A DNA stretch of 57,429 nt from a virus: the IMG/VR virus record IMGVR_UViG_3300037427_004775, positions 1 through 57,429 of that record; one strand, given 5' to 3'. The notes beneath the pieces were generated by a model. The model ran no database searches, was not told where the DNA came from, and saw only the letters and a program-made list of their open reading frames with translations. Made by a program: the position numbers and the translations under genes. This document shows, one piece after another, positions 3,001 through 57,429 of this stretch (the first letter of the stretch is position 1; every line of letters begins with the position of its first letter).

Positions 3001-3072
3001 CATGATCTTCTTTTTATCACTTGCCTTGAACAAGGTTGGACGCGGGTCCCTATTGCTTCTTTTTTTCGCCAT
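1..3072 (-). CDS. LamG-domain tail/baseplate structural protein (3' end outside window)
   Basis: The frame is open from an ATG at 3072 (TAATG overlap with the preceding stop) to the left edge: 1024 codons without a stop, C-terminus missing. Residues about 85-325 look like a concanavalin A/LamG sandwich (VNHYPFDGTRKEIE, then SVSIEFHIYVPDEE, FEHCALVFNRD and ALDELRVYHKTL). A second LamG-like stretch ends near residue 915 with GHFRFWSKALAINEW. Between them, residues about 500-600 carry KSKGTIHSVKALIRSMGVEP, which resembles the fold-defining helix of P2 gpI-type tail proteins; that match is weak. Repeated SGS turns suggest an extracellular beta-rich virion protein. It is the most promoter-distal gene of the baseplate run, so a peripheral baseplate or receptor-contact role is likely. 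The exact T4 counterpart is not assignable. Confidence 0.8.
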   Translation of the reverse strand, partial: MAKKRSNRDPRPTLFKASDKKKIMGGLANKRAELDMVNTDNISSSFRYDAFGQGFKSTQQVNTDFSNFENHTFFGSATVNTNIAFDRIVNHYPFDGTRKEIENFEDTLTGFERHVLDTWPKNKGYIHFSGSSGASGGSYISVSDIAGLQNPALSKDASGRAALDPIRKSVSIEFHIYVPDEEVQNQIVCQKIDSSSRFGYSVGMKYSASSKTHANIFFAISSGSSLMHAQMPVKKGRFEHCALVFNRDTPTNKISMYRNAKLIATSSERGDFGTFGSNFKKANFLIGSGSSFVTSSIGLSTIKFEPKATLTGALDELRVYHKTLTKDDLVNSGKRSVYQDKSMALYYRFNEPSGTIGTDNSLVLDYSGNSLHSRITNFKMSLRTTSSISNPMVEEDVAMSPVLFPYFNDVRQKNIKLLITASAYDDVNPNLITRLVPSHYFEEGSDFEGLDDPMGSVSGSYGGTGRPGSGELGTYQLLSGFLYVWAKHFDELKVFIDSFSKVLTTDYYDEDTTSDTFLTFIAEYYGFDLPNLFGGASLPQFVEGRNLKPDSSIGSEGLSKIQSKIWRQVLTNLPEVIKSKGTIHSVKALIRSMGVEPDSSLRIREFGGPSRRALSGSRVTRKAVTALADFSGSWATAAGTLTHHGVSLNKPFLISPFLSSSRVEPGFPLPKGTFIYNDKKQRTGTNVSSDGLLTSGSWTFEGVYRFPMRLTGSTYLTQSLVRLNVTGTSAPSLKHGMIANLILVSGSEVTGSRVTLHARPGMGENSSDSRYLELSITGTNVLDGDMWWISFGRERNDKILVPGSSSYFLRVGKSVYGELDVTNTFMTSSYFKDSKNPTGSVFSNISSTLQTSGTFMTVGSQSLSLASSNKRFLNAHLAASSRQNQEIHVTNFGGQAGHFRFWSKALAINEWQEHVRNYKSLGVRNPAINFNFTTNISGSFEKLRMDASCEQLTTGSDANKKITINDYSQNCFHLTGTGFEVSSSALRPIDIHYSHLSTKIDELYTTNKIRNRSFINFETAQEMD

Positions 3073-4589
3073 TAAATCACGCTAAAAACATTTCCAGTAT
3101 TTTTAAAATATAAATCTATGCCTCGTTCTTTAACTAAAAACTCTATTTTGTAACTCCTTCCCTTAGAAAGCGCATCAAAATACAGATCAAAAAACATACC
3201 TTTTCCATCTGAGGACAGATTTGTAGATCGCTTCACAGTATCAAACGGTATTATCACATCATTCGTTCTTGCATCTATCACCCTATAGAACATTTCTTTT
3301 GTTATTATTGATTTCTTTTCTCTCGGTGTTTTTCTAGCTTTTACAATCACTGGGGTCATATCAGCTATATGCACTCTAATTCTAGCCTTGTCGCCTAAGC
3401 GATACTGACTTCTTTGATTTGTCATTGTTACAGAAAGTCTTCTTGGAGATGAATCAAAACTTGAACGGGTTATTTCATTTATAACAATAGAGCCCGTGTG
3501 ATATGCAATATTCATATCTTTAGAGAGCCAATACACTTTGAAAGTTCCAGAGCCCACTGAATTTATTTCGCCTGTTAGACTTGTTTCTAGCGAAGAAATT
3601 GCAAACGATGCCGAGTACACCCCTGTCACATAATTTTTTCCTATCTTATGCTGTGATGCGCTCAATATTCTAGAGAAAGAACCTGATTTCAGCTTTAGTG
3701 TGATACACTCAGATCCGGACATTTGGACAGCTGCAGTACCAGAAAGTATATTGGCTGGCTGGCCCCTGTGATAATTTCTAAGAAAGATTGAACCTGTCAA
3801 ATCAAAAAACATAGATTCTTGATGATCGTGCTCTGAGTTATCATACTGCACCAAGATCTTTGGTCGTTTATAGACATTTGAAGCATGTCTCGAGGCAAAG
3901 CGTTTTACAAATCTTGTCTTTTCGTCTGTCTCATTTGTCCCAGAGAATGATAATCTAAGACCATGATCAGGCAAGAGGCCTGCAATTGTTGCAGAAACTA
4001 TCGTTGTGATATCAATTGATAAGTCTTCTTCGCCCGTATCAAACGACTGTGTCTTAAATAGGTCTACTACCCCTGAACCGTTTTGCAAGTTACCACTTGC
4101 TATTATATCAATATTGCTTTGCCCTAAAACACCGAATGCATTAGATCCAGAGGAATTCCACAAAACGGGTGTACCGCTTTGAATTGAAGATGTAATAAAG
4201 TTACAACTATCTAGATGGGAAAATGTCTTTACATCCATACCGACACCTTCATCAAAAGATTTTGAAAGCGGGTATACGATCATTTTAAAATTAGACGGAC
4301 AAGATTGACCGCCGTACACATCGTATAGTTTGAGTGTGCACTTAAATGAGTCGTGAGAAATATCTAGAATTGATCCAGTCAAAGATTGCAAAGGTGCAAG
4401 ATCAAACTTAATTAAAAGCCTAGAAAGCTCATTTAACGAAGATGAACCGTTGAGTGTGCTCTCGGCAAACATCTTGAATAAATCTAAAGTTCCGGCCTGG
4501 CCAACATTGGCGTCAGTTGCTCTAAACTTATCTGATACTATCTTATTTGTAATATACGTGTCTTTTAGCGGTTTTAGGATTTTATACAT
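3072..4589 (-). CDS. Baseplate/tail-associated structural protein, DNRLRE-like
   Basis: 505 residues beginning MYKILKPLKDTYITNK, the usual opening of DNRLRE-type beta-sandwich domains found in secreted and virion proteins. The first 260 residues keep the pattern of that family (LLIKFDLAPL, then KMIVYPLSKSFDEGVG, SIDITTIVSA and KRPKILVQY). The remaining half is beta-rich, with Ser/Gly-rich linkers, and ends without a recognisable catalytic motif. The gene lies 8 bp after the baseplate wedge gene and overlaps the LamG gene by one base, so the three are probably co-translated. Function within the baseplate is inferred from position only. Confidence 0.7.
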   Translation of the reverse strand: MYKILKPLKDTYITNKIVSDKFRATDANVGQAGTLDLFKMFAESTLNGSSSLNELSRLLIKFDLAPLQSLTGSILDISHDSFKCTLKLYDVYGGQSCPSNFKMIVYPLSKSFDEGVGMDVKTFSHLDSCNFITSSIQSGTPVLWNSSGSNAFGVLGQSNIDIIASGNLQNGSGVVDLFKTQSFDTGEEDLSIDITTIVSATIAGLLPDHGLRLSFSGTNETDEKTRFVKRFASRHASNVYKRPKILVQYDNSEHDHQESMFFDLTGSIFLRNYHRGQPANILSGTAAVQMSGSECITLKLKSGSFSRILSASQHKIGKNYVTGVYSASFAISSLETSLTGEINSVGSGTFKVYWLSKDMNIAYHTGSIVINEITRSSFDSSPRRLSVTMTNQRSQYRLGDKARIRVHIADMTPVIVKARKTPREKKSIITKEMFYRVIDARTNDVIIPFDTVKRSTNLSSDGKGMFFDLYFDALSKGRSYKIEFLVKERGIDLYFKNTGNVFSVI

Positions 4590-10663: not shown

Positions 10664-10982
10664 GTTCTTCTTCTCCTTCTTCAGGTCTAGCTATTAGATT
10701 CTCTTTACTTTCAATGCTCATCATTGTATTCGCGACATAAAGTATAGAATCCCTAGACATAGATACGTCTCTTAGTACCTTTCTGACTTCTGGAGAATTA
10801 TAAAATAAGGGGGTCTCCAAGATTTTTGTTATAGATCCATAACGTGAATCAAGCACATCTAAACATTCTCCTATCGCGTCTTCAACGCGAAGGATAACCC
10901 TGGCAAACTTAAAAGCGTAAAATAGTGACACTGATGTAACAAGAGAGAGAATAGCTGTGCTAATTATCCACGGTGATATCAT
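10653..10982 (-). CDS. Single-pass membrane protein, unknown
   Basis: 109 residues with one N-terminal membrane helix (WIISTAILSLVTSVSLFYAF, about 5-24), then a helical soluble domain (FARVILRVEDAIGECLDVLD) and an acidic tail (ARPEEGEEELGD). The ATG overlaps the glycosyltransferase stop as ATGA, and the 3' end overlaps the sigma-like gene, so it is in the same transcription unit. No family recognised. Confidence 0.65.
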   Translation of the reverse strand: MISPWIISTAILSLVTSVSLFYAFKFARVILRVEDAIGECLDVLDSRYGSITKILETPLFYNSPEVRKVLRDVSMSRDSILYVANTMMSIESKENLIARPEEGEEELGD

Positions 10983-12142
10983 TTTATATACTCGTAGTAT
11001 ATTTTATTATAATGCTCCTTGATTGCTGACATACTGTGAGATGTCCTTAGTTTTTCGCCGAGATCATCGGCCCACTCTGCAGGCATTGCGGGTTTCTTAT
11101 AAAATGTTTTTAGTCTTTGTTTGAAATTTTCTTCAGATGGTTCTGCCCATTTTGAGCCTTTAATAAAGATGTGACCATCAATTCTAGAATCGTGAACCTC
11201 TTCTAGTCTATAGCTTACACTTATAAACTTTCCCCTATTCATAAAATCTAAGTGCCCAGACCAGTTAGTTGCGATCACAGGAATTTTATGTACTGAGGCT
11301 TCTAAAATTGGTAGCCCGTAACCTTCGCCACGAGTCAAGCCAATAAAACATTTGATTGACTTATCCCTATAAAGACTAGTCATTTCATCACCGGACATCA
11401 AGCCGTGCAATAAGCTTACTCTGGGATAATCTCCTGTTCTTACTTCTGAAAGTAGTCCTTTTAAAGCTCTCTTCGTCAAAATCCTATCAAGTGTTGTGGC
11501 TCTTCCGGAAGATGCCTTGATAACAAGGCCTACATCTTTATTCCCTTCAAATGTTTCACAGAACCACTTGACTGTATTGTATGTATTTTTTCTATCATTG
11601 TATGGATTGTCACCTGTTAGTGTCCCCACCATTAAAAAATTAAAATCAGTGTTTAAATTTAAATCAATTTCTTCAACATTTTCTTTGCTACATTCGTCAA
11701 AATATGCTTCTGGAATTACTTCGATTGGTGTTGTTACGTTTCCAGAGTTGCAAATAGTCTGTTTTGTATGGACAGATGGAACTATAACTAGATCCATCTT
11801 GTTGCATGCAGTGACCCACTCTGGGTGGCAGATATCTGTTTCTACAGCTGCTGTAACACCCACATTGAATCTTGCTAGCATTGGATCCCACTCATTAGGT
11901 AACTGTATTTGAAATGATACGTCTGCACCCTGTCTTTCTAGCGGCCCAGAACAACCCATTATTTGACCTACAAGACCGTCTAAACCGTCTGGGTTTATAT
12001 ACCACGTTGTATTTCCCCACGGTGTTAATTGAGTCGATATCTTTGCATCTTCAATACTTGATACCCACTTAAAAACTTGTCTTGCATGCTCCCCATAACC
12101 TGATGCTGTGATCAGTGGGCCTCTTACGACAATATTCTTCAT
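10979..12142 (-). CDS. Glycosyltransferase, GT4-like (GT-B fold)
   Basis: 387 residues. The N-terminus MKNIVVRGPLITASGYGEHA has the glycine-containing acceptor loop common in GT4 enzymes. Residues about 165-215 give the linker and start of the donor domain (FNFLMVGTLTGDNPYNDRKN). The donor-binding signature is clear at about 268-300: FIGLTRGEGYGLPILEASVH followed by KIPVIATNWSGHLDF, the E-x7-E type motif that binds nucleotide sugars. An SD GGAG precedes the ATG. It is the last glycosyltransferase of the island, directly ahead of the late-sigma and baseplate genes. Sugar and acceptor are unknown. Confidence 0.85.
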   Translation of the reverse strand: MKNIVVRGPLITASGYGEHARQVFKWVSSIEDAKISTQLTPWGNTTWYINPDGLDGLVGQIMGCSGPLERQGADVSFQIQLPNEWDPMLARFNVGVTAAVETDICHPEWVTACNKMDLVIVPSVHTKQTICNSGNVTTPIEVIPEAYFDECSKENVEEIDLNLNTDFNFLMVGTLTGDNPYNDRKNTYNTVKWFCETFEGNKDVGLVIKASSGRATTLDRILTKRALKGLLSEVRTGDYPRVSLLHGLMSGDEMTSLYRDKSIKCFIGLTRGEGYGLPILEASVHKIPVIATNWSGHLDFMNRGKFISVSYRLEEVHDSRIDGHIFIKGSKWAEPSEENFKQRLKTFYKKPAMPAEWADDLGEKLRTSHSMSAIKEHYNKIYYEYIK

Positions 12143-12148
12143 TTTATT

Positions 12149-13393
12149 CTAGAGCTCCTCGCAACGCCATGGTTGATATCCTTCTTTAAAACTTTCGATA
12201 CACTCAGATAAAGTTTCGTTCCAATCATCGACCGTATCTTGCATGTTAAACTGTGTTTTTGCATAGTCCTTTACTTTCTTACTTAGTTCGCTTTTTTCTT
12301 CTGGAGATAGGCTGTATAGTTTCATAATAGCATCAGAAATTGTTTCAGCAGACACATAATCTTCATAGATGTAAGGAACACCTTGTGAACCAACAAGAGT
12401 TCGATATTCTATAGGCATAGCAACGCCATTATGCGTTCCATCGCGATGATCCTCCACTTGTCTAGTTAGACCACCGGTCTTTGGTGCAATAATTGGTGTG
12501 CCGCCCATCATAGCTTCTAGTGTCCCTAGACCAAATCCCTCAGCAAGGGAAACATTAATACAGAAATCACTAATGTTATAGAGAATGTTTATTTTATCAA
12601 ACTCTAGTCTTTCACTTGAAAACCAGACAGATTCATTAATTCCAAGTTTTTCTGCAGCTGCAAATAGATTAGGACCTTCACCATCTAAAGGATCCGTATG
12701 CATAATTAGACACGCTTTTCTATGACCGTGCTCCTTTTCTAAATTATCCATAAATAGTTTCCATGCCCATAAAAGATCATTTGGTCGTTTTCGCTTGGCA
12801 TTTCTATTAATCCAAATCCCAACAAACCAATCTTCTTTTCCGGGACCCAGAACTTGTTTTCTCAGCTCGAGCTTTTCATCTTTGGGAATCTCATTATAGA
12901 TTTCCTTGGGAACAGCATGAGGAATGAAATTGGTTTTTTCTGGATGTCTGTCTCTTATAAGGCTATATGTCATATGAGAGTGGCAGTTTATAAGGTCGGT
13001 TGCCTGATAAATTGCATCATTAAACTCTGGGTATGGGCCGTTGTCCCAAACATGCCACCAAACTATTGGACAAATTTGGTGTACTTCATCTTCCATTTCA
13101 AATAACCAGATAAAAAATCTAGGGTCAGTGAACAAAAACAGAGCATCTGGTTTTTCTGTAGCTAGTGCCACTCTCAGAAGTTCAGGATCACCAAAACCAT
13201 CAATAGGTTTGATAATAAAATCTTCATTGACAACAACAGTTTCATAATCACTATGCTTTAAAGCAGCTCCAAATTGTCTAAACGACCAGTCTCCTTTTTC
13301 AAGGAGGCCTTGGATTAAAAATCGGCTCTGAGTGCCGACTCCGCTTGTGCTTAAAGCATGATCTGAAAGCATTAAAACTTTTTTCTTTTTCAA
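12149..13393 (-). CDS. Glycosyltransferase family 4 protein
   Basis: 414 residues, GT-B fold. N-terminal KKKKVLMLSDHALSTSGVGT is a typical acceptor-domain start. The donor domain contains FCINVSLAEGFGLGTLEAMM then GGTPIIAPKTGGLTRQVEDH, the EGFG and second Glu characteristic of GT4. The start codon is TTG with GGAG five bases upstream; the alternative ATG at residue 7 has no such site. It lies 6 bp upstream of the neighbouring GT4-like gene, suggesting the two act in sequence on one glycan. Confidence 0.88.
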   Translation of the reverse strand: MKKKKVLMLSDHALSTSGVGTQSRFLIQGLLEKGDWSFRQFGAALKHSDYETVVVNEDFIIKPIDGFGDPELLRVALATEKPDALFLFTDPRFFIWLFEMEDEVHQICPIVWWHVWDNGPYPEFNDAIYQATDLINCHSHMTYSLIRDRHPEKTNFIPHAVPKEIYNEIPKDEKLELRKQVLGPGKEDWFVGIWINRNAKRKRPNDLLWAWKLFMDNLEKEHGHRKACLIMHTDPLDGEGPNLFAAAEKLGINESVWFSSERLEFDKINILYNISDFCINVSLAEGFGLGTLEAMMGGTPIIAPKTGGLTRQVEDHRDGTHNGVAMPIEYRTLVGSQGVPYIYEDYVSAETISDAIMKLYSLSPEEKSELSKKVKDYAKTQFNMQDTVDDWNETLSECIESFKEGYQPWRCEEL

Positions 13394-24870: not shown

Positions 24871-26187
24871 TTAATGCCACACGGGAGTATTGACTGATAG
24901 GTCGCTCGCAGCTTTTTGATATTCCTTTAGTGCATCGTCTAAACCTAGCGATTCTTTCAAAGGTAAAAATACCTCTCTATGTAAAGCTGTAAGAACAGTG
25001 TTTGGTACCCAATGCCTAGTACAATTAGAACAATGCATATTGCATACGTCTATAGGGGAAAGATCTTCTCTTATTTTTTGATAAGCATTACTGCGCCAAA
25101 CTGACTCGAAACTATCGTTTGTTACGTTTCCGATATTGTACTTTTCTCTTTGATCAGACTTAAATGTTCCGTTATCGTCATATAGATGACAACAAACATA
25201 TGTTCTACCAAAAGCATCGATCAAAGAAAACAATTCAGTTGTAAAGCATGTTATCTCATTATTACTATAGTACTTTCTAGTCGGAAGTCCGTCAATAACG
25301 TCTTGTTCATCTAATAGCTTTAAAAAGAAATCTTTTAAATAATTCAAATTAGAATACTCAGAATTAACAAGTTCTTCATTTACAAGAAGGTCATTTTTTA
25401 TCCAATCTAAATCTTCTTTTGTACACAAGTACTTGCCCCCTTCGCCGTGAGCCAACTTCATTGATGCCTTAATCTTATTTTCCTCGGCATATCTTATCAT
25501 GGCAGGAATGCTTCTTACATTATTCTTTTGGATGGTGAATGCCAGACCGATGGAAAAATTAGAGTCTTGATTCTCTTCCATAGCATTTCTTAAATTACCT
25601 ATAGATTTATCAAGCTCTTCAAAGATATCACCGTGATCTTTTCCATATGCTGGTGCTTCGAGGACTCTCCGGACATTCTTTTTTTCAAAGTCTTCCTTCA
25701 CGTCATCTTGTGAAATCCTTACCCAAGAACCATATTGGACCATTGCACTAGCTATTTCTTTAGTAATTCCCACTCCGTTACTGAGTACGCCTACCTTTAC
25801 GCCAAATTCATGGGCAGCCTTTATTAATCTGACAAACTCGGGGTGAGAAACCGGTTCGCCTCCTGTCCATAAAAAAGTCTTAACGCCTAAATCAGCCAAC
25901 TCTTTAAAAAGTTCTATTTGTCTATCTGCTGTTAACTCAACTGTTTCATCATAGTCTTTTTGATTGGTCCATGTCCACCTAAAACACATTCTGCATCCCG
26001 TGGTGCAAAAATTTGTGATCTCAAACTGAACACACTGAGGGACTGGTAAATCATCAGGGTTTTTTGTCTCGTACGCCTTGAAGATATCTGGCGTATTTCC
26101 TAAATAAGTTGCTGGACCATTCTTTCTAGAGCTATCAGACGTCTGAAAGCGATTCATTATTTCTTTTATTTTATCTTTTGTTGACAT
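24871..26187 (-). CDS. Radical SAM enzyme with C-terminal cysteine cluster (SPASM-like)
   Basis: 438 residues. The [4Fe-4S] motif CTTGCRMC (Cx3Cx2C) is in VQFEITNFCTTGCRMCFRWT near residue 60; FLWTGGEPVSHPEF supplies the GGE motif. The C-terminus has CCHLYDDNGTF and CNMHCSNCTRHW, auxiliary-cluster cysteines as in SPASM/Twitch proteins. Such enzymes in polysaccharide clusters epimerise, deaminate or cyclise sugars, or modify peptides; the substrate is unknown here. It lies among FkbM and DUF6625-type genes with 8-11 bp gaps. Confidence 0.88.
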   Translation of the reverse strand: MSTKDKIKEIMNRFQTSDSSRKNGPATYLGNTPDIFKAYETKNPDDLPVPQCVQFEITNFCTTGCRMCFRWTWTNQKDYDETVELTADRQIELFKELADLGVKTFLWTGGEPVSHPEFVRLIKAAHEFGVKVGVLSNGVGITKEIASAMVQYGSWVRISQDDVKEDFEKKNVRRVLEAPAYGKDHGDIFEELDKSIGNLRNAMEENQDSNFSIGLAFTIQKNNVRSIPAMIRYAEENKIKASMKLAHGEGGKYLCTKEDLDWIKNDLLVNEELVNSEYSNLNYLKDFFLKLLDEQDVIDGLPTRKYYSNNEITCFTTELFSLIDAFGRTYVCCHLYDDNGTFKSDQREKYNIGNVTNDSFESVWRSNAYQKIREDLSPIDVCNMHCSNCTRHWVPNTVLTALHREVFLPLKESLGLDDALKEYQKAASDLSVNTPVWH

Positions 26188-45387: not shown

Positions 45388-46641
45388 TTACTTGAGACCA
45401 CACATCATCATGATTGCTATTAAACCGGGTGCACCATCGTTTACATAGACACCTGAAAACAACGTATCAGCTCGACCGCCAACATAAGAAATGGCCGATT
45501 CTAGATGATTGCTAACAGAAGGTAGGTCTAGAACAGGTGTTGGGGCAACAAGCAAGAGCGATCCTGCTGAACCTTTTTGTGTAATGGATGGACAAGGTGA
45601 TCCTTTGAGGCAATTTTGATAAATTACAGAACCTAAACCACGTTGCTCCGGATCTCTTATGATTGATGTCCCTAGAAAAATTCTTCCAGATGATTTCAAA
45701 CAAGACTCTAGATCTTTAGAATCAAAAGTTTGAACAGTAGAAGATTCTGAAGCCAGCTTAAGAACATGACCCAGCATCTTTGAAAAAGCCTTATTAGCAG
45801 CTGGGTACATTCCCAACATTCCAACTTTTCCTCTGAGTAGTTTTAATTGCTTTTCGTTATCTAGAACAATATGAGGATGATCAGCTACGGATGCAAGTAA
45901 GTGATTTGAGTTAGCTTTGATGGTGGGGTTCAATAGTTCCTGAGCTGTTGGGGTGGTTGTTATATAGACAACTCTTCCGCTACCCTGTGTGGACTTTAAA
46001 TGTCTTTCAAGTGAATCATTGAGTGCTGCAGCAGAACTTCCTGTTCCTCCACCGCCTCCTGCACAAACGAAAATCCAGTCAACGTCTCCGATCTTGGTTC
46101 GTAAAGCATCTTCCACCAGCGCGCTGTTTTCAGATAAAACTGCAGTACCTAAATCAACGTTTTTTCCAACGCCATCGGCCCCTGGAATAAGAAGAAAGTG
46201 ATCTTCTTCAACATCGTCAGGTTGATCTTTTTCCGTAGTGTTTACTAGAATTGTTTTGTTGAAACCCAGGTCTAAAAATGCCTTGGCCAGTTTTCCACCA
46301 CCTCCACCCAAGCCAATAAATGCACATGAAAGCGCTGAAGCAGCTGTGTTTTCTGGTAGTAGTTCTTCGCTCTTAACTTCATCATTTTCATCAAAATGGC
46401 TTACAAAGTCAAAATCATCAAAATCTTGAGACATATTAATTTCCTCCGAGTGTTCAGGCTCATCTTCTATATAATTAACATCTTCATGAAGTTTTTTATT
46501 CTCTTTGTTTATAGAGGCTTCATCGTCATTCATTGTTGACTTTTCATCACTGAGCACATTCTTTTTCCCGGGCTTACCATTCAAACCTCGCTTTCTTGCA
46601 TGTTCTCTAGTCATAGTAGATGTTTTTACTGTACTGGCCAT
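45388..46641 (-). CDS. FtsZ/tubulin-like GTPase with long acidic N-terminal extension
   Basis: 417 residues from the ATG at 46641. Residues 1-105 are charged and probably disordered (basic start, then Glu/Asp-rich). The GTPase domain then begins: CAFIGLGGGGGKLAKAFLD, the tubulin signature FVCAGGGGGTGSSAAAL, and a T7-loop-like VQTFDSKDLESCLKSSGRIF where the FtsZ consensus is NxDFADV. The catalytic Asp-like residues seem retained. Phage tubulins (PhuZ, TubZ) position DNA or organise infection centres; this one is distinct in having an N-terminal extension. A TATAAT lies eight bases before the ATG with no SD. Confidence 0.85.
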   Translation of the reverse strand: MASTVKTSTMTREHARKRGLNGKPGKKNVLSDEKSTMNDDEASINKENKKLHEDVNYIEDEPEHSEEINMSQDFDDFDFVSHFDENDEVKSEELLPENTAASALSCAFIGLGGGGGKLAKAFLDLGFNKTILVNTTEKDQPDDVEEDHFLLIPGADGVGKNVDLGTAVLSENSALVEDALRTKIGDVDWIFVCAGGGGGTGSSAAALNDSLERHLKSTQGSGRVVYITTTPTAQELLNPTIKANSNHLLASVADHPHIVLDNEKQLKLLRGKVGMLGMYPAANKAFSKMLGHVLKLASESSTVQTFDSKDLESCLKSSGRIFLGTSIIRDPEQRGLGSVIYQNCLKGSPCPSITQKGSAGSLLLVAPTPVLDLPSVSNHLESAISYVGGRADTLFSGVYVNDGAPGLIAIMMMCGLK

Positions 46642-46685
46642 CAATAATAATTATAATGTTAATAGCAGTCAAGTTAATTCAAGTC

Positions 46686-49282: not shown

Positions 49283-49654
49283 TGGTGGACCCGGCGGGAG
49301 TCGAACCCGCGTCCGCAATAGCTTCAAAGTCAAGTCATTCACAGGTTTGTCTAATTTATTCCCAAATTAGAAAGGTAGCCACAAAATTCCCTTTTCCTAT
49401 GTAGCCTTGGAAAACCACCTGATCAAATCAGGGTAACCATTGCGATTTTTTTATTTCGCAGGATCTCTACCTGTTATCTTAAATTGGGTAATAAGGTCTT
49501 AAGCAACCCCACCGACTAAGCCGCTAAGCGGGCAGATTCGAAGTGATAATTGTTATTGGCAATTAAATTTTTGAAACCGCGTTTAAGGTCCGCTATTTCG
49601 TGTGACCACCTGCACTCTCGTTCTCTCCTACCCCGTCGAAGCCGTTTCGGGCCC
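49283..49654 (-). ncRNA. ssrA: tmRNA (SsrA), tag ANNNYHFESARLAA
   Basis: 372 nt. The 5' GGGCCCGAAACGGCTTCGAC and 3' CGGGTCC-ACCA form a seven-pair acceptor stem with a G3-U70 wobble, the alanine identity element. The T-arm GCGGG-TTCGACT-CCCGC is intact and CCA is encoded. The reading frame at 49560-49516 gives the tag ANNNYHFESARLAA and TAG stop, ending in the LAA degron recognised by ClpXP. It starts 7 nt after the Hc1-like gene's stop (49662), so it is likely excised from a joint transcript. It rescues stalled ribosomes and marks products for proteolysis. Confidence 0.95.
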
Positions 49655-49910: not shown

Positions 49911-50156
49911 TTAATTAGTGACAATCAATGTACTGCTTTTATTAATCTCACCATCTGCCACCGCAGTACATGCCTTGGAAAGATAACGCATTTCTTCTAT
50001 GTTTTCTAGTTCTAAAGATAAGAGATAGACTAGTTGAACAATTTGCTTTTGTGATACTCCAAAGTTTAAAATTTCTTGAACGATATCTCGGCACTTTGCC
50101 CTATCTTTTATATCTAGTTCATCTTCTGTATCACCGTATGTTTTTATCTTTGCCAT
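49911..50156 (-). CDS. Conserved small phage hypothetical
   Basis: 81 residues; KIKTYGDTEDELDIKDRAKC then RDIVQEILNFGVSQKQIVQL and VYLLSLELENIEEMRYLSKA, all helical. This pattern recurs in T4-like marine phages as I recall it; function unknown. The start lies 26 bp inside the preceding gene, so the two are translationally coupled. Confidence 0.65.
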   Translation of the reverse strand: MAKIKTYGDTEDELDIKDRAKCRDIVQEILNFGVSQKQIVQLVYLLSLELENIEEMRYLSKACTAVADGEINKSSTLIVTN

Positions 50157-50652
50157 CTTCGATCATATCCTTGTAGCTTATTTTATTATTCTCTACAAGT
50201 TCTGCTCTTGTAAATGACTCTATTTTAACTTTTGCCCCACCGAGCATTTTCATAATCTTTCCAGAAACTGTGCCTTTAAACTCTTCCCTGGTAAGTACAA
50301 TAGGCGGCGCTTCGAGACCCGTTTCATAATAAAACTGAACTTCTTCCCAAACAGGGATATCACATTCGTAAGTGTCTAGTATTTTAGCAATATTTTCTGG
50401 GATCGATGCTCTAATATCTTCTTTAGTCATTACAGAGATTGACATCTCTCTACCAGTTACGATTTCAGATTCACATACATCAGTAATGTTGTGAACGACA
50501 CCACAGTTATTGCAGTGAACAATTTTTGAAAGCACGTTGTCATCATTATCAATAACTGTAAACACTACAAACTTATGAAAAATCGGATCTTTCATTTTTC
50601 GAAACTGTGGTAAAATACAATGACATTGAATCAAGTGTTTAATACCTCTCAT
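50131..50652 (-). CDS. Conserved phage hypothetical with Cys pairs
   Basis: 173 residues. CHCILPQFRKM and HCNNCGVVHNITDVCE look like a zinc-ribbon (C-x-C, C-x2-C). The remaining sequence is mixed alpha/beta (IPVWEEVQFYYETGLEAPPI, FKGTVSGKIMKMLGGAKVKI). ATG overlaps the deformylase stop. No assigned function. Confidence 0.7.
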   Translation of the reverse strand: MRGIKHLIQCHCILPQFRKMKDPIFHKFVVFTVIDNDDNVLSKIVHCNNCGVVHNITDVCESEIVTGREMSISVMTKEDIRASIPENIAKILDTYECDIPVWEEVQFYYETGLEAPPIVLTREEFKGTVSGKIMKMLGGAKVKIESFTRAELVENNKISYKDMIEDGKDKNIR

Positions 50653-51137
50653 TTTAACTTCCTTAGTTTTTTCATAGCAATTCTTCTTGTATTTCTATTG
50701 ACCCTACTAAGAAATGTCTTTCCTAGTAAATGATCCACTTCATGGTGAATGCACACAGCTTCAGGCCCCGAAAAAACCTTCTTGGCCGTGGCACCGTTAA
50801 TGTCTAAGTATTCAACAGTTATCTGCATTGGCCTTGCTACATGCACGCCAATATCGGGAAAACTTAGACAACCCTCTTGATTGACTTCATTCCCGGCAGT
50901 TGAAACAATAACTGGGTTGATCATGCAGTTTGGTTGATCTTCTTCTTCTGAACAATCGAAAACAAGAATAGACTCAGTAAATCCGACTTGATTTGCTGCT
51001 AGTCCACAGCCGTTATTTTCGTACATTGTATCAATCATATTATTGATTTTATTTAACAGTGCCTCGTTGATTTCGAAAACTTCCTCCGTGGGTGTATCCA
51101 AGCATTTATTTGGATATCTTAGAATATCAAGAATCAT
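50649..51137 (-). CDS. def: Peptide deformylase
   Basis: 162 residues. All three motifs are present: GCGLAANQVG (I), QEGCLSFP (II, metal Cys) and HHEVDHLLG (III, HExDH). It removes the formyl group of nascent proteins. Phage deformylases of T4-like marine phages are usually shorter at the C-terminus; here the length is nearly bacterial. It is the only clear enzyme of co-translational processing in the window besides the tmRNA. Confidence 0.95.
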   Translation of the reverse strand: MILDILRYPNKCLDTPTEEVFEINEALLNKINNMIDTMYENNGCGLAANQVGFTESILVFDCSEEEDQPNCMINPVIVSTAGNEVNQEGCLSFPDIGVHVARPMQITVEYLDINGATAKKVFSGPEAVCIHHEVDHLLGKTFLSRVNRNTRRIAMKKLRKLK

Positions 51138-51637
51138 TTCGAATGCCTATCTGCAACTGATGACGATGCCCAAGATTCTGGTTTCACTTTAAACGGAAAA
51201 CCAGCACTTCTTGCATAACCTGTTAACATGTCAGCATATTTTCCAGTTTCACCATTTTCGATAGATGCGCTTATATCTAGATGTAATTCTATAGAAGCTT
51301 CAGGACAACTTTTTGAAATTTTTAGTGCAGTATCAACTGTTTTTTGAACTTCAGCTAGCATTCTTGTTGCTAGGGTTTTGAATGATTTGGGTTTTTCTTT
51401 TTTTCTACTGATAAAATATGTTCCACCAGATTGTCCATCAGCACCGTGGAGACAAATAGCTTTTGCAAATACGCAACTGTCTTTATTTAAGATGCTATCT
51501 GTACCTACAAATATTTTCCCCCCTTTTCTCGTGTGCGTCTTTAAAGTTTCTAAAATTTCAACAAAAGAAACATGTTTCTCACCATTCGGTGTAAACCATA
51601 CTTGATCAGTGTCTTTGTCTTCTTCCTCATTTGTCAT
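51134..51637 (-). CDS. YkuK-like RNase H-fold protein (DUF458)
   Basis: 167 residues. GGKIFVGTDSILNKDSCVFA then KAICLHG and SGGTYFISRKKEKPKSFKTL match the DUF458/YkuK family, an RNase-H-like fold with the first Asp in VGTDS; SIELHLDISASIENGETGKY supplies the next Asp. Nuclease activity is likely but unproven. Overlaps the deformylase gene by 4 bp and the GroEL-like gene by 11 bp. Confidence 0.8.
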   Translation of the reverse strand: MTNEEEDKDTDQVWFTPNGEKHVSFVEILETLKTHTRKGGKIFVGTDSILNKDSCVFAKAICLHGADGQSGGTYFISRKKEKPKSFKTLATRMLAEVQKTVDTALKISKSCPEASIELHLDISASIENGETGKYADMLTGYARSAGFPFKVKPESWASSSVADRHSK

Positions 51638-53030
51638 AGACTAGTGCTCCTGATGTACTGATTAATAATTTTAAATTCTCATGGGCGGACTTGACAGATC
51701 TCAATAGTGATCCTGTAGGAATACATTTGGCATCTTTAAAAAATAGTCGAATTGAACTCGACAGGACATTGCTTAACCAATCCTCAGATAGATCTAGATC
51801 TTTTATCCTCGTCATTCCGTAATCTCTAACAATAGGGATTGATCGAAAACCTCCGTCGATATCTTTTCTAATTTTTCTGGCCAAGTCTTTTGGTATATCT
51901 TTACTTAAAGACACATGCACACTTCTAGATGAAAGCGATCTAATTCTTTCTCTGATCGATGATTCATAAAGATCAAATGTATGTGAATCTAAAGTTTTTC
52001 TTTTTATTTCTATTTCAGAACGTAGTCGCTGCAAGTGCAATCTAGTTGAAGAAGCACCGCCAATATTTGTGATTAAAAGTTTACCTTTTCTTATTTCAAC
52101 GTGATCAGCCACAGAGACTTCATTATAGTCGATGCTTGATATCAATTCGCCTTTGAGATAAGAAACAGGATCTGTTTTACAAACTACGGATATGTCAACA
52201 AAAGAATTGATAAGATTTTCATCATTTTTTAGCTTTAGAGGGAACACATTAAGTGTTTGTCTCTGCATATTGACATAAAGTGTTTGGAGTACTTCGTCTC
52301 CAAAGCCCCTTGCAATTAAAATAACTGGATCTAAATTTTTTGAAGCACTTTCTAGCAAATGATTTATCTCTGAAACAGATTCTATAATCCCATCAATAAC
52401 TATGCAATTTACAAAACTATGATTCCATTGACGTCCATTGAAAAAGAATTCATCAAATGTTTCTATTGAAAAGGCGTGAGAGTGCTTTACTTCTAATGTA
52501 GTGAAGGCTTCCTGGTTTGTTTCAATAAAGATTTTACCATCGAGCCCAGCATATTTGCAACTATTTAGTATAAGATCCTTGCTTAGTTCAGCCTTGTTTA
52601 ACTTATTAATGAATCCAAAAAAACTATCTGATGTTCCAATGATCGATGAACTTGAAATATCTTCATAAAATGAACGCTCTAGTTTTTCAAGTACTTGGAT
52701 TGGATCCAAACCAGAAGCTTTTTCTATTAATAAATGTTTGAGAACTTCAATAGAATAGAAAAAAGAAAAGTCAGAAAAGAAAGGCGATGATCGAAACGCC
52801 TTCAAAGACTGACTTACTAGTATTTTAACGATCTCTTTAGTTACCGGAGATTCATATTCAATACATTGAATCGCCTCTACTAGACCGTCTAAGTGAAAAA
52901 GTTGACCATTTTTATTTTCGAAAATAGCATCTTTATTATAAAATAATGAGATATCGTTAGAAATCTGCTGAATGCCGTTTTTGAAGTCATTAAAATAGTC
53001 GTCTGCTGCAATGACTTTCGTATAGCTCAT
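51627..53030 (-). CDS. Divergent GroEL-like chaperonin with degenerate ATP-binding motif
   Basis: 467 residues versus about 548 in GroEL. The apical domain pattern is clear: GKIFIETNQEAFTTLEVKHS followed by HAFSIETFDEFFFN (GroEL: GVITVEDG...[20 protein letters not shown]), then VSEINHLLESASKNLDPVIL and IARGFGDEVLQTLYVNMQRQ then LNVFPLKL, as in GroEL's LLIIAEDVEGEALATLVVN. SGLDPIQVLEKLERS matches AGMNPMDLKRGIDKA. But the GroEL DGTTT loop is replaced by SDFSF, the LGPKGR loop by a different sequence, and the PGGG motif near the end by GGFRSI. Hence it may be a non-hydrolysing or otherwise altered chaperonin, or a scaffold. Confidence 0.65.
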   Translation of the reverse strand: MSYTKVIAADDYFNDFKNGIQQISNDISLFYNKDAIFENKNGQLFHLDGLVEAIQCIEYESPVTKEIVKILVSQSLKAFRSSPFFSDFSFFYSIEVLKHLLIEKASGLDPIQVLEKLERSFYEDISSSSIIGTSDSFFGFINKLNKAELSKDLILNSCKYAGLDGKIFIETNQEAFTTLEVKHSHAFSIETFDEFFFNGRQWNHSFVNCIVIDGIIESVSEINHLLESASKNLDPVILIARGFGDEVLQTLYVNMQRQTLNVFPLKLKNDENLINSFVDISVVCKTDPVSYLKGELISSIDYNEVSVADHVEIRKGKLLITNIGGASSTRLHLQRLRSEIEIKRKTLDSHTFDLYESSIRERIRSLSSRSVHVSLSKDIPKDLARKIRKDIDGGFRSIPIVRDYGMTRIKDLDLSEDWLSNVLSSSIRLFFKDAKCIPTGSLLRSVKSAHENLKLLISTSGALVYDK

Positions 53031-53052: not shown

Positions 53053-53304
53053 TCAAATCGTGATCCAGATGACTGAATATTTTTCGATTATTGTTTTTTG
53101 TAGTGTTATAGTGATGTCATTTGAGCTAATCTTTACGGGCTTTAAACCGTCAAATGAAAGCCACCCGCTTACACTAGAATAAGCAATATCTTTTTGTGTA
53201 TGAAAAATCTCTTCCCCTGGATAAAAAAAGTTATTATGTCCTCTGACACTTACTTTGAAAGGTGTACCTTTTTTAATTGTACCTTCGAGGGCTTGATAGG
53301 ACAT
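53053..53304 (-). CDS. Small beta-rich protein beside the GroEL-like gene
   Basis: 83 residues: GTIKKGTPFKVSVRGHNNFF then FDGLKPVKISSNDITITLQK. It is beta-rich, which would fit a co-chaperonin such as T4 gp31, but no mobile-loop motif is evident and I would not name it. SD GGAGAAAG. It overlaps the preceding gene by 1 base. Confidence 0.55.
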   Translation of the reverse strand: MSYQALEGTIKKGTPFKVSVRGHNNFFYPGEEIFHTQKDIAYSSVSGWLSFDGLKPVKISSNDITITLQKTIIEKYSVIWITI

Positions 53305-53585
53305 TAGCTTTCTCCAGAAGAGCTTTTACCAAAATTACCAAAAGCATCTGCCAAAGCAGCACTAGCGGACTTTATTTTCTCAGATTCAGCATTCTTTTCT
53401 TCCAAAACTTTAGTCTTTTCAGCAATTTCAAATGCCGTTCTAAAAATAGCACCTAAAATACCCAATGAGACTAGCGTGATTCCAAAAGCTTGATTGTCCC
53501 ATACACTATGACTTAAGGCACCCATAGCTACCATGAGTTCTTGAATTTGAAATTTGATACCGACTTTATTTGATTGAAAACGCAT
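53304..53585 (-). CDS. Small membrane protein with coiled coil
   Basis: 93 residues from the ATG at 53585, which has AGGAGG eight bases upstream (the longer frame to 53633 has none). One hydrophobic helix FGITLVSLGILGAIFRTAFEI then a charged coiled coil EKTKVLEEKNAESEKIKSAS. Lies between PrkA and the small beta-rich gene. Function unknown. Confidence 0.65.
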   Translation of the reverse strand: MRFQSNKVGIKFQIQELMVAMGALSHSVWDNQAFGITLVSLGILGAIFRTAFEIAEKTKVLEEKNAESEKIKSASAALADAFGNFGKSSSGES

Positions 53586-53636
53586 TGTTGTACCTCCTGT
53601 CTTATTATAAGGCAGGAGATAACTAATGTTCAAATA

Positions 53637-55571
53637 TTATGAGTCACGCCAAAGGTTGTTGCTTGCATATGTCAAAATCTCTTCGGCAGAGTTTTCATCA
53701 TAACCGTACTCATCAATCATAGTCTGGACCATTTCTGAATATTTTTGCTGTTGATCATCATCTCTAGATTTGCTCTTTGTTACGACTCGGGCAAGATCTT
53801 TGACAGATGACATAAGATATGTCTCGATTGCTTCTTTGAGTGGCGCATAGCTAGTATGATCAATTTTTTCATTTCTTCGCATCTTAGCAAACATATATGC
53901 AGTAACATCTGATCTAAATCCATCCCTGGACGACCCCATGATACCTATTGTCTCTTCAATGGCTCGCATAAAGTCCTCATCTGGCTCCATGGACTCTTTT
54001 GTCACCCTGTTTTTCATATTTTGCCTAGTGGTATAAGCCTCAGCATTATCAAGGTAGGTGTCAAATATTGATTGAGCTTGTTCAGAATAAGCAGTGATGA
54101 AAGCTTTTGCGATCTCATTTTCTAATATTTTTAAATACTCTTCTCTAATTACCTTTCTAAGTAATTCTAGACAATATGTTCTAAATTCTTCATTTATTAG
54201 CTGCTCTTCTGTTTGACGTATTAATGAGTGTATAACAGAGACAGGGGTTATCATGTTCTTTTCAGAGTCTGTTAAGGAATTATCAATAGCCTTCATAATA
54301 AAACGTGTTGAAATTCCATCCATGCCTTCATTTCGAGTTTCCTCTCTAAGGTCTTTTATGTCTACTTTTTTGACTTTCCCTTTTTCAATGACGTCTTCAC
54401 CATTGTAAATTTTCATTTTTGTAAGGATATCACACTTCGAAGTAGGCTTTAAGCGACTCATGACTGAGAACATCGAAGCTATTCGTAATGTATGCGGTGC
54501 AATGTGAGCTGAAAAGTCTGATCTACTCAGCTGCTTTTCATAGATTTTGACTTCTTGATCAAGTTCTAACACGTATGGCACATTAATTTTAACGACACGA
54601 TCTAAAATGGCTTCGTTTGTATGCTCACTCTGGAATCGATTCCACTCTGACTCATTACAGTGTGCCAGTATCACACCGTCAAAATAAATCATGTCATGCT
54701 TTCCAGGAGATGGGACTCGCTTCTCTTGCGTTGCTGTGATTATTGTATGAAGGAATTCGATTTCATTTTTGAAGATTTCAACTAATTCGACAATTCCTCT
54801 ATTTCCAACATTGAATGCACCGTTCAATGATAGCACGCGTGGATCATCTTCTGAGTACATGTCCAGCTTCGAAATATCTTCAGAGCCAATCAATACAGAT
54901 ACATCCTGACTATTAGCATCCATAGGTGGCACAGAAGCAATTCCTCGCCTAGCACGCTGAGAGAACGTTGACTCTTTTACGGTGAAATCTTCATATTTTC
55001 CGTCGTGTTCTTCTAATAATCTATGTCTTGCAATCGGGCTTATATCACCCTCTATTTTTACGCCCAACATCTCTTCAAAACGTGTGCGAAGACTTCTTGG
55101 TATAAGGTGTAATGGTTCACCTCTTTGCGCATCACCTTCAAGATGAAAGTAACTCTCTCCATCGAGCGCCTTCTTGATGTGTTCTGTTAGTGCAGATTTA
55201 CCAGCACCCACCGGACCCATGAGAAGTAATACCTGTCGAGATTCTTCACCCCGCTTGGCAGCAGAGTTTAAAAATCTCATAATTTTAGCAATGACTCTTT
55301 CGTTTCCAAAGAATTCATCTTCAAAATATTTGTAAATTTTTATAGAGTCGCCACCAAAAAGCTTATGACAACGTTCATCAGAATCATCCATCACTCGAAC
55401 ACCGTGAACTTCTAATGCATTGCACAATCTTTTATGCGATAGCTTTACAAGATCTGGGTTTTGTTTTACGAGATCAAGGTATTCTAAAAATGTTCCCCTA
55501 AACTTTTCTCTCTTTTTTTCATTTCTTTGACTCTGAATTAAATTCAAGAAATCGTTTTCATTTTTAGGCAT
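53637..55571 (-). CDS. prkA: PrkA-type serine protein kinase
   Basis: 644 residues, same as bacterial PrkA/YeaG. The AAA domain contains VLLLMGPVGAGKSALTEHIK (Walker A, about 110-130) and MIYFDGVILAHCNESEW (Walker B region plus sensor), with the arginine-rich helices SFSQRARRGIASVPPM of PrkA. The C-terminal PrkA domain follows (SLIRQTEEQLINEEFRTYCL, VTAYMFAKMRRNEKID). PrkA is an AAA-linked serine kinase or protease-like regulator of stationary-phase and sporulation responses. SD AGAGGAAAA. Directly after the SpoVR gene. Confidence 0.95.
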   Translation of the reverse strand: MPKNENDFLNLIQSQRNEKKREKFRGTFLEYLDLVKQNPDLVKLSHKRLCNALEVHGVRVMDDSDERCHKLFGGDSIKIYKYFEDEFFGNERVIAKIMRFLNSAAKRGEESRQVLLLMGPVGAGKSALTEHIKKALDGESYFHLEGDAQRGEPLHLIPRSLRTRFEEMLGVKIEGDISPIARHRLLEEHDGKYEDFTVKESTFSQRARRGIASVPPMDANSQDVSVLIGSEDISKLDMYSEDDPRVLSLNGAFNVGNRGIVELVEIFKNEIEFLHTIITATQEKRVPSPGKHDMIYFDGVILAHCNESEWNRFQSEHTNEAILDRVVKINVPYVLELDQEVKIYEKQLSRSDFSAHIAPHTLRIASMFSVMSRLKPTSKCDILTKMKIYNGEDVIEKGKVKKVDIKDLREETRNEGMDGISTRFIMKAIDNSLTDSEKNMITPVSVIHSLIRQTEEQLINEEFRTYCLELLRKVIREEYLKILENEIAKAFITAYSEQAQSIFDTYLDNAEAYTTRQNMKNRVTKESMEPDEDFMRAIEETIGIMGSSRDGFRSDVTAYMFAKMRRNEKIDHTSYAPLKEAIETYLMSSVKDLARVVTKSKSRDDDQQQKYSEMVQTMIDEYGYDENSAEEILTYASNNLWRDS

Positions 55572-55623
55572 AAGTTTTCCTCTGTCTTAGAACCATTATA
55601 GGCCTACATTTAGTAAATATAAA

Positions 55624-56931
55624 TCAAATTTCCCATGGTTCCTCTTCAATGATCGTATGAAGCTTAACAACACCATTCCAGAGGATTGAAATATTATTAA
55701 CAACCTGCTCGGCGTAGTTCAATTCTAAGTCTCTATCGTCGTGATCATGCTGTAAAACGAGGACATTTCCAGGCTCTATATCAATCACACCGATCACTGG
55801 GATACTATTTGTTCCCGTACTAGTAATGAGCGCTTCTTTTATTTTTCTCCAACCATGATCATCAGATATGTCATCTATTGTATAGGCATTCTTTTTAGCA
55901 GAATAGCTAAATAAATTTAATTTTAAAAAATCTTCTTTTGTTAAAAGCGCTCGAAGGGCAGCAACATCATGAAATACTTCTCTAATAAAAAAGCACTCAT
56001 CAAGCCCCTGTTCTTCTTCTATTCTTTGAAAAAGATGAAAACCCAAGTGATAAGGATTTATTGCACCAACGTGCGGCCGCACGACTTGATTGTGCGTTTT
56101 CAAAAATGGAATGTGAAGGTCTTCAGTTAGTTTTAACTCATGCATCATTTTGTAGTGCCAGAACGAAGCCCAGCCTTCATTGAGAATTTTTGTTCGAATT
56201 TGTGGTACAAAATATAAAGATTCATCCCTCACGATTGAGATGAGGTCTCTCTCCCAGTCTGATAAATGATTACCGTGCTCAATAATAAAACCCAGTACAT
56301 CAATATCAAAGTTTATTGGAACCTTTTCGCAATCAGTGTCCCTATACTTGTCATCCTTGCTTGTTCTAATTTTTTTAATTAGATCTTCTTTTAAAATTTT
56401 ATGATCTATTCTTTCCTGACCATCGCGATACGTCTGAAATCTTATGGAGTGAGCTGCATCTAGTATTTTTTCAACCTTTTCTATTCCAACAGACGGATCT
56501 TCAATGTAGCCCTGGATTCGATTTCTAGCATTTCTAAACTTTGAAAGAACTGTGCTCGGGTTAGTTTTTGCAAACTGTGGGTTATTTTTAAAGAAATCAG
56601 AGTGCCCAACACAGTGTGCCATGATTAGAACTTGCATATAGAGGGGATTTTCTCTCATTAGATAAGCAATTGATGGGTTTGAATTGATAATCAATTCATA
56701 AGGGAGACCCTCAAGGCCTGCGTTATAAAGCTGATGCGTTCTTTCAAAACTTTTCCCATAAGACCAGTGTGGGTAATGACTCGGTAAACCATGATAAGAC
56801 ATGTGTCCAATCATTTCATAGTAGTCACATATTTCATAATCAATGGGAAACCAGTCAAGGTTATAAGACTTGGCCAAGTCTATAATTCTATCATCCCACT
56901 TTTCTAGATCGCTTATTTTCCAATCATTCAT
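55624..56931 (-). CDS. spoVR: SpoVR family protein
   Basis: 435 residues from the ATG at 56931, which overlaps the YeaH stop by 8 bases. YNLDWFPIDYEICDYYEMIG then MSYHGLPSHYPHWSYGKSFE and YELIINSNPSIAYLMRENPL are the SpoVR signature, and MAHCVGHSDFFKNN with later His residues gives a metal-like site. Bacterial SpoVR/YcgB is 470-510 residues, slightly longer. In bacteria it is almost always encoded beside prkA and yeaH, as here. Function: needed for spore cortex in Bacillus and linked to stress responses elsewhere. Confidence 0.93.
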   Translation of the reverse strand: MNDWKISDLEKWDDRIIDLAKSYNLDWFPIDYEICDYYEMIGHMSYHGLPSHYPHWSYGKSFERTHQLYNAGLEGLPYELIINSNPSIAYLMRENPLYMQVLIMAHCVGHSDFFKNNPQFAKTNPSTVLSKFRNARNRIQGYIEDPSVGIEKVEKILDAAHSIRFQTYRDGQERIDHKILKEDLIKKIRTSKDDKYRDTDCEKVPINFDIDVLGFIIEHGNHLSDWERDLISIVRDESLYFVPQIRTKILNEGWASFWHYKMMHELKLTEDLHIPFLKTHNQVVRPHVGAINPYHLGFHLFQRIEEEQGLDECFFIREVFHDVAALRALLTKEDFLKLNLFSYSAKKNAYTIDDISDDHGWRKIKEALITSTGTNSIPVIGVIDIEPGNVLVLQHDHDDRDLELNYAEQVVNNISILWNGVVKLHTIIEEEPWEI

Positions 56932-57429
56932 TGAATTGTCCCCCAAAGAGTTTTGCAAAAGCCGGCCAGATATCTTCCTTATCTGTCAACAAAACATTCT
57001 TGAAATTTTTATCAACAAGAACTTCGTACTCTTGCGACATGGTCGATCTTTCCATTGTTCCCCACCGTGGGTGATCTTCTGTCGGTATAATTTCAATAAA
57101 ACAGTAAAGTTGAGCAAGGCGCTTTATGATTCCAGCAGCTTTGATCGCTTTGTCATTATCTTCAGGCCAATTGTCGCCATCTGAACAGTGAAAAGCATAT
57201 ATGTTCCATGAATCCGGATGATATCTCTTCTCGATTATTTCATTTGCCAGAACAGGTGCTGATGAAATAAATGTCCCTCCGGAGGTAGTAACCTTAAAGA
57301 AGTCATCCTCAGATACTTCTTTTGCATCAATTGTGTGAGCAATAAAAACAATTTCTGTATTTTCATATCGATAATTGATAAACTGGTACAGTAAAAAGAA
57401 AAAACTTCTTGCAATATACTTTTTTCTCT
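56924..57429 (-). CDS. yeaH: YeaH/YhbH (DUF444) protein, C-terminal part only
   Basis: The gene runs in from the right edge. 168 codons are visible: TEIVFIAHTIDAKEVSEDDF then FKVTTSGGTFISSAPVLANE and WNIYAFHCSDGDNWPEDNDK are the conserved C-terminal core of DUF444, which has a von Willebrand A-type fold (DGDNW). It ends LFGGQFNE. The N-terminus and start lie outside. Its stop overlaps the SpoVR start. Confidence 0.93.
   Translation of the reverse strand, partial: RKKYIARSFFFLLYQFINYRYENTEIVFIAHTIDAKEVSEDDFFKVTTSGGTFISSAPVLANEIIEKRYHPDSWNIYAFHCSDGDNWPEDNDKAIKAAGIIKRLAQLYCFIEIIPTEDHPRWGTMERSTMSQEYEVLVDKNFKNVLLTDKEDIWPAFAKLFGGQFNE

What the first reader, a model, noticed from the sequence alone, without database searches (positions are those of the whole stretch)
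53637..57429. Bacterial stress trio PrkA-SpoVR-YeaH in a phage
All three genes are adjacent, overlapping and in the order known from bacterial genomes. In bacteria this operon acts in stationary phase, sporulation and stress. Having the full set suggests control of host physiology or of a dormant infection state.
Basis: partly seen in the sequence, partly recalled or inferred. Interest (0 to 1): 0.75.

Follow-up and report, generated by a model that had tools for sequence, protein, structure and literature searches.

The report
Bacterial stress trio in jumbo phages
A set of three genes that bacteria use to ride out starvation (PrkA, SpoVR and YeaH/YhbH) is a strongly preserved part of a group of large, uncultured ocean and lake phages, and unrelated phages have picked up the same three genes at least twice more, so it probably helps these viruses control or exploit a stressed host.

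Summary
PrkA (53637-55571), SpoVR (55624-56931) and the last 167 aa of a YeaH/YhbH (DUF444) gene cut by the contig end lie side by side on the minus strand of an IMG/VR phage record. It is not contamination: the same genes, in the same order, occur in 88 of 91 related viral loci (the other three are cut by contig ends), on contigs up to 361 kb, with phage genes on both sides. Ten of 11 large contigs checked carry a T4-type terminase.

Here it is YeaH>SpoVR>PrkA; in 58 of 63 complete bacterial loci it is PrkA>YeaH>SpoVR. Only YeaH/SpoVR overlap (8 nt).

In all three gene trees these phages form one clade (SH-aLRT 100), near Clostridia-type homologues. Thermus phages and a second large-phage group captured the trio separately (AU tests). 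Catalytic motifs are kept and dN/dS is 0.01-0.09. No integrase was found in 13 large contigs, so a dormancy reading lacks support.

Best reading: a lytic-phage AAA+/vWA/SpoVR remodelling machine managing host stress physiology or protein quality, beside a degenerate chaperonin, peptide deformylase and tmRNA. Mechanism is inferred. Components were reported in phages before; the module-level picture appears new.

The parts
56924..57427 (-). YeaH/YhbH (DUF444, vWA-like) C-terminal 167 aa; 5' part lost at the contig end
   Evidence: Pfam DUF444 4e-55; NCBIfam closest is YhbH type TIGR02877, 4.5e-52, below its whole-protein cut-off; full-length relatives keep the MIDAS DxSxS motif in 87/87
55624..56931 (-). 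SpoVR, 435 aa, ATG start overlapping the YeaH stop by 8 nt
   Evidence: Pfam SpoVR 1e-115; start from sequence and relatives; AF2 pLDDT 93.8
53637..55571 (-). PrkA, 644 aa, AAA+ domain plus PrkA C-terminal domain
   Evidence: Pfam 2e-134 and 2e-74; Walker A in 92/92 of the clade; homologous to solved PrkA 9xip
53304..53633 (-). small ORF directly after PrkA (3 nt gap), unknown; family found next to PrkA in 23 loci
53053..53304 (-). small ORF, 83 aa, unknown
   Evidence: no family hit
51627..53030 (-). degenerate group I chaperonin-like protein, 467 aa, ATP motif lost
   Evidence: Foldseek GroEL E 4e-27, TM 0.5-0.66, about 14% identity; motif loss
51134..51637 (-). RNase H-like protein, conserved in part of the clade
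   Evidence: Pfam PF04308 1e-25; 16 loci
50649..51137 (-). peptide deformylase
   Evidence: Pfam 1e-43; above NCBIfam cut-off
50131..50652 (-). conserved neighbour of unknown function, 173 aa; family in 59 loci
49911..50156 (-). conserved neighbour of unknown function, 81 aa; family in 47 loci
49283..49654 (-). tmRNA with its own tag (ANNNYHFESARLAA)
   Evidence: ARAGORN, Rfam RF00023 108.7 bits; tmRNA also in 16 of 55 related loci

Best explanation
This is a bacterial-type PrkA-SpoVR-YhbH/YeaH operon, captured long ago by an ancestor of a clade of uncultured T4-type jumbo phages and kept since as a functional module. Shown here: the genes are phage-borne, co-inherited as a unit, reordered relative to most bacteria, under strong purifying selection, and captured separately by other large phages. 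Inferred: PrkA forms an ATP-driven AAA+ ring; YhbH/YeaH, with a MIDAS metal site, is its vWA-type adaptor, as in MoxR/vWA pairs; SpoVR, with an invariant His/Glu/Asp set, is a third component, probably metal-binding and catalytic. Together they remodel or inactivate target proteins to hold the infected, often starving, host cell in a low-turnover stress state and keep the proteome usable during a lytic infection, alongside the phage's own tmRNA, peptide deformylase and chaperonin-like protein. My confidence is about 0.95 for identity and phage ownership and about 0.4 for host-stress/proteostasis control as the job; the figure given is for the combined statement.
For: Identity: Pfam, NCBIfam. 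Phage ownership: virus record; 88/91 loci with the trio in the same order; phage helicase, PhoH and polynucleotide kinase-like genes around it; T4-type TerL in 10 of 11 large contigs; the window's baseplate-wedge protein at 43-47% identity in 9 of 12 contigs searched, 36-49 kb from PrkA in five of them, as in the window; even GC. Co-inheritance: the clade is one group with support 100 in PrkA, SpoVR and YeaH trees. Separate captures: AU p 6e-12, 1e-50 and 7e-7 against joint clades. Function kept: dN/dS PrkA 0.02-0.07, SpoVR 0.02-0.07, YeaH 0.01-0.09; MIDAS DxSxS 87/87; 27 SpoVR columns invariant across phages and bacteria. Setting: chaperonin fold, peptide deformylase, tmRNA. Biology: YeaG and YeaH act together as a metabolic brake in N-starved E. 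coli (PMC10954441; PMC4664914). Lytic tendency: no integrase in 13 large contigs.
Against: No expression or biochemical data exist for these phages. The biochemistry of bacterial PrkA is disputed: B. anthracis PrkA showed negligible protease and kinase activity (PMC13001217). In Thermus phage Lalka8 the trio sits between head genes and TerL, which could point to virion assembly rather than host control. The host is unknown. The AAA+/vWA partnership is argued by family resemblance, not tested. The neighbouring genes are conserved only in part of the clade.
Confidence: 0.5

Rival explanations
1. The trio is a phage protein-folding and assembly machine: PrkA/YeaH/SpoVR handle phage structural or replication proteins, with the chaperonin-like protein and tmRNA as partners, and do not act on host regulation.
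For: The neighbours are proteostasis genes (chaperonin fold; peptide deformylase; tmRNA). In Thermus phage Lalka8 the trio lies between portal/minor head genes and TerL, and in phiYS40 it lies close to TerL.
Against: In the window's clade the nearest functional genes are PhoH, helicase and polynucleotide kinase-like genes, not structural ones. Bacterial homologues have regulatory and stress phenotypes. No assembly role is known.
Confidence: 0.25
2. Bacterial contamination or a chimeric contig end in the record.
For: The cluster is at the contig end. One 'phage' record, Enterobacter phage LAU1, does carry host-type yeaGH at its end (86% identical to chromosomal E. coli yeaG).
Against: 88 viral loci have the same order, with phage genes on both sides. 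There is a distinct viral clade at 68-77% identity to the window, against 57% for the best bacterium. The 'Methylococcaceae' 305-kb contig L103 nests inside the viral clade, so it is probably a misbinned phage.
Confidence: 0.02
3. The trio serves dormancy or a lysogenic/pseudolysogenic state or host sporulation, as its gene names suggest.
For: spoVR is named the most abundant sporulation AMG in an oxygen-minimum-zone virome (PMC8940887). YeaG/YeaH quiet metabolism in starved E. coli. The YeaH homologue scores best against the YhbH sporulation model.
Against: No integrase in 13 large contigs. The families are widespread in bacteria that do not sporulate, and the phage host is unknown. No sporulation-specific gene was seen in the neighbourhood.
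Confidence: 0.1
4. Counter-defence: the trio disables a host immune or abortive-infection system, e.g. by remodelling its effectors.
For: Large phages often carry such genes; separate acquisition by several lineages fits strong selection.
Against: No match to defence models except a weak AAA-domain hit to DolB, and chromosomal homologues are stress genes. Strong purifying selection and a stable order across the clade are not typical of fast-changing counter-defence genes.
Confidence: 0.08

Closest known systems
Bacterial prkA-yhbH/yeaH-spoVR operon (E. coli yeaG-yeaH, ycgB; Clostridia-type closest)
   Same: All three families, full-length domains, catalytic motifs, tight gene clustering
   Different: Gene order circularly permuted; carried by a phage; PrkA only about 57% identical to the best bacterium; scores below NCBIfam equivalog cut-offs
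Thermus phages phiYS40, TMA, phiLo, MN1, Lalka8 (SpoVR and serine kinase genes)
   Same: Phage-borne, same order YeaH>SpoVR>PrkA
   Different: Separate capture (AU p 6e-12), about 30% identical; third gene mostly annotated as hypothetical
Huge uncultured phages (LR745206, LR756502, LR756504, LR756511) and related IMG/VR contigs
   Same: Large phages with all three genes
   Different: Mostly Alphaproteobacteria/enterobacteria-type sequences; LR745206, LR756504 and LR756511 keep the bacterial order PrkA>YeaH>SpoVR; in LR756502 SpoVR is far away; LR756511 is a further separate branch
Ralstonia jumbo phage RsoM2USA (PMC8504454)
   Same: SpoVR (ORF28) and PrkA (ORF30) close together in a jumbo phage
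   Different: Annotated singly; third gene and order not described in the paper; record not held, so not tested
spoVR as a viral sporulation AMG in an oxygen-minimum zone (PMC8940887)
   Same: SpoVR in marine viruses
   Different: Read there as spore formation, no mention of PrkA; here SpoVR travels with PrkA and YhbH/YeaH in jumbo phages
MoxR-AAA+/vWA pairs (RavA-ViaA, CobS-CobT type)
   Same: AAA+ ATPase next to a vWA/MIDAS protein (from general knowledge)
   Different: Different AAA+ family (PrkA); the likeness is functional reasoning only

Membership tests
PrkA (PF08298 + PF06798) | AAA_PrkA domain and PrkA C-terminal domain over Pfam cut-off | tested here: met
   448.5 and 250.9 bits against cut-off 25
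PrkA (PF08298 + PF06798) | Intact Walker A | tested here: met
   92/92 of the clade
PrkA (PF08298 + PF06798) | NCBIfam equivalog PRK15455 cut-off | tested here: not met
   387.8 bits against 576: family member, not that equivalog
PrkA (PF08298 + PF06798) | Kinase or ATP-dependent protease activity | not testable with these tools
   Disputed even for bacterial PrkA (PMC13001217)
SpoVR (PF04293) | Full-length SpoVR domain over cut-off | tested here: met
   386.7 bits against 27, profile 1-404/407
SpoVR (PF04293) | Invariant residues shared with bacterial SpoVR (H106, H110, E252, H259, N292-P293-Y294, D322) | tested here: met
   59-sequence phage and bacterial alignment
YeaH/YhbH (DUF444, PF04285) | DUF444 domain over cut-off | tested here: met
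   188 bits against 27 on the C-terminal part in the window
YeaH/YhbH (DUF444, PF04285) | MIDAS DxSxS metal site | tested here: inconclusive
   This part is beyond the contig end in the window; present in 87/87 relatives
Bacterial PrkA-YeaH-SpoVR operon | Usual gene order PrkA>YeaH>SpoVR | tested here: not met
   Order is YeaH>SpoVR>PrkA; 58/63 complete bacterial loci have the other order
T4-type jumbo phage | T4-type large terminase and baseplate wedge in the clade | tested here: met
   TerL in 10 of 11 large contigs; baseplate wedge in the window and in 9 of 12 contigs
Temperate phage | Integrase | tested here: not met
   PF00589 absent in 13 large contigs; contigs may be incomplete

The most novel reading that the evidence does not exclude
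Several unrelated large-phage lineages have each captured the same three-gene AAA+/vWA/SpoVR machine as a unit, and in the window's clade it has been joined with an ATPase-dead chaperonin-like protein, peptide deformylase and tmRNA into a viral proteostasis and growth-arrest island that lets lytic jumbo phages replicate in starved hosts.
Probability: 0.25. Interest if true: 0.8.

Novelty: new variant of a known kind. Interest (0 to 1): 0.6.

Why it matters
PrkA, SpoVR and YeaH/YhbH are widely conserved bacterial stress genes, and what they do together is still unknown. A compact viral version, captured separately by several large-phage lineages and almost always as the set of three, says that the three proteins work as one machine and that this machine is useful during infection. 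It also warns that 'sporulation genes' in ocean viromes may often be this stress module. Cultured Thermus phages carry it, so its role can be tested directly.

Tried and rejected
Contamination: rejected. Enterobacter phage LAU1 as a phage example: rejected, host-type yeaGH at the record end. T4 late-promoter test for expression class: TATAAATA is absent from the window (0 against 5.0 expected) and almost absent upstream of the trio, so timing could not be read. Sigma-70 promoter scan: no more than chance. SpoVR fold search: no PDB match at E 0.001 or better, so no enzyme class could be assigned. PADLOC: only a weak DolB AAA hit. RsoM2USA record not held in the phage collection. Donor: the sister set is Clostridia-rich but mixed, with Bacteroidota and Pseudomonadota nearby, so the donor is not named. 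Prevalence of the trio among contigs with a related TerL: 1 of 13, the only one over 200 kb; the rest are fragments, so core status by this route is inconclusive. The AU test of all three viral groups together did not finish.
Full report
What is there. The window is an IMG/VR virus record, 57,429 bases. On the minus strand at its right end lie the C-terminal 167 aa of a DUF444 (YeaH/YhbH) protein running off the contig, then SpoVR, then PrkA. Sequence inspection places the SpoVR start at the ATG at 56931, overlapping the YeaH stop by 8 nt, and leaves 52 nt with a Shine-Dalgarno-like site before PrkA.

Not contamination. A scan of IMG/VR with the window PrkA gave 147 relatives; the 80 kept were 68-77% identical. 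With the SpoVR scan this made 91 loci, of which 88 have all three genes in the order YeaH>SpoVR>PrkA and 3 are cut by contig ends. A few of these loci are near-duplicates of the same phage, so 88 is not a count of independent lineages. Contigs reach 361 kb. Ten of eleven large trio-bearing records encode a clear T4-type large terminase; the nearest isolates of one of these terminases are Microcystis phage Mel-JY01 and Flavobacterium phages at 41-45%. The window's baseplate-wedge protein is found at 43-47% in 9 of 12 contigs searched, and in five of them it lies 36-49 kb from PrkA, as in the window. Conserved neighbours include PhoH, a helicase, a polynucleotide kinase-like protein and a trypsin-like protease. 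GC is even. In contrast, Enterobacter phage LAU1 carries host-type yeaGH at its end, 86% identical to E. coli chromosomes, which shows what contamination looks like.

Order. Bacterial genomes retrieved with a PrkA alignment show PrkA>YeaH>SpoVR in 58 of 63 complete loci. Five have YeaH>SpoVR>PrkA: four Bacillota MAGs and Sulfobacillus. A sixth hit with that order, L103, is a contig of the phage clade in a Methylococcaceae MAG, probably misbinned. Thermus phages share the permuted order. Three of four huge uncultured phages and 68 of 80 contigs of a second large-phage set have the bacterial order. Some contigs of that second set could still be bacterial, since only 10 of 16 large ones gave a terminase match.

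Trees. The window's clade is one side of a branch with SH-aLRT 100 for PrkA, SpoVR and YeaH. In the PrkA and SpoVR trees it lies with a Clostridia-rich group. Thermus phages and the huge phages lie elsewhere. Holding this clade together with Thermus phages, or with the huge phages, or those two together, is rejected (AU p 6e-12, 1e-50, 7e-7). So at least three captures by phages are needed, with LR756511 a probable fourth. These are quick trees with some long branches (phiYS40, phiLo, L143), so exact sister groups of the Thermus phages are uncertain.

Function kept. Walker A is intact in 92 of 92 clade members. MIDAS DxSxS is present in 87 of 87 YeaH relatives. SpoVR has 27 columns invariant across phages and bacteria, including H106, H110, E252, H259 and D322. 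Among 21 close pairs dN/dS is 0.02-0.07 for PrkA and SpoVR and 0.01-0.09 for YeaH where dS was not saturated; the chaperonin-like neighbour shows 0.13-0.28. SpoVR is predicted with high confidence (pLDDT 93.8) but matches no PDB fold, so its chemistry is open. PrkA has a solved homologue, 9xip.

Neighbourhood. Next to PrkA lies a 467-aa protein predicted with confidence as a whole chaperonin fold (GroEL E 4e-27, about 14% identity). The GDGTT ATP motif is lost in it and not kept in its family. A chaperonin-like family member is within the neighbourhood in most loci (73 loci, including some canonical copies). Several relatives (L035, L036, L038, L039, L056, L073, L080) instead carry an upstream GroEL-like gene on the other strand, and the one inspected (L036) keeps GDGTTT. 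Further on are a peptide deformylase and a tmRNA, with a tmRNA also in 16 of 55 related loci.

How it likely works. Established: E. coli YeaG and YeaH act together to quiet metabolism in nitrogen starvation (PMC4664914; PMC10954441). The enzyme activity of PrkA is disputed (PMC13001217). I infer an AAA+ ring with a vWA adaptor and SpoVR as a third, probably metal-dependent part, used in a lytic infection to manage stressed-host physiology or the proteome. No integrase was found in 13 large contigs, against a lysogenic use. A virion-assembly role is the main rival because of the Thermus phage gene positions.

Known or new. PrkA and SpoVR have been annotated singly in phiYS40-like phages and in jumbo phage RsoM2USA (PMC8504454), PHROGs holds families for all three, and spoVR was counted as a sporulation AMG in an oxygen-minimum zone (PMC8940887). 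In the library searched I found no account of the trio as a repeated phage module, of its order change or of its separate captures; most subscription papers and preprints were not searchable.

Noticed in passing
window 51627-53030 (-): Fast-evolving, full-length chaperonin fold with the ATP-binding GDGTT motif lost, near PrkA in most of the clade; a possible ATPase-dead phage chaperonin.
   Followed up: partly
window 49283-49654 (-): Phage tmRNA with its own tag; tmRNA also in 16 of 55 related loci with varied tag peptides.
   Followed up: partly
window 45388-46644 (-): 418-aa FtsZ/tubulin-like protein (NCBIfam ftsZ E 8e-10, Pfam Tubulin 2.5e-6, both below cut-off); possibly a PhuZ-like phage tubulin.
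   Followed up: no
window, whole: TATAAATA, the T4 late-promoter core, is absent from both strands (0 against 5.0 expected from shuffles).
   Followed up: no
L103 (NHDW01000006.1, Methylococcaceae TMED69): A 305-kb contig in a GTDB species genome nests inside the phage clade: probably a phage contig misbinned in a bacterial MAG.
   Followed up: partly
L099 (MN688132, Enterobacter phage LAU1) 1-3308: Record ends in host-type yeaG/yeaH DNA (86% to E. coli chromosomes), annotated as phage genes.
   Followed up: yes
window 10979-13393 and 24871-26187 (-): Two glycosyltransferases and a radical SAM/SPASM protein in a run of otherwise unnamed genes.
   Followed up: no
L146 (Bacterium HR16) 1557-3173: A GroEL gene lies about 4 kb upstream of the PrkA-YeaH-SpoVR operon on the same strand of a bacterial contig.
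   Followed up: no
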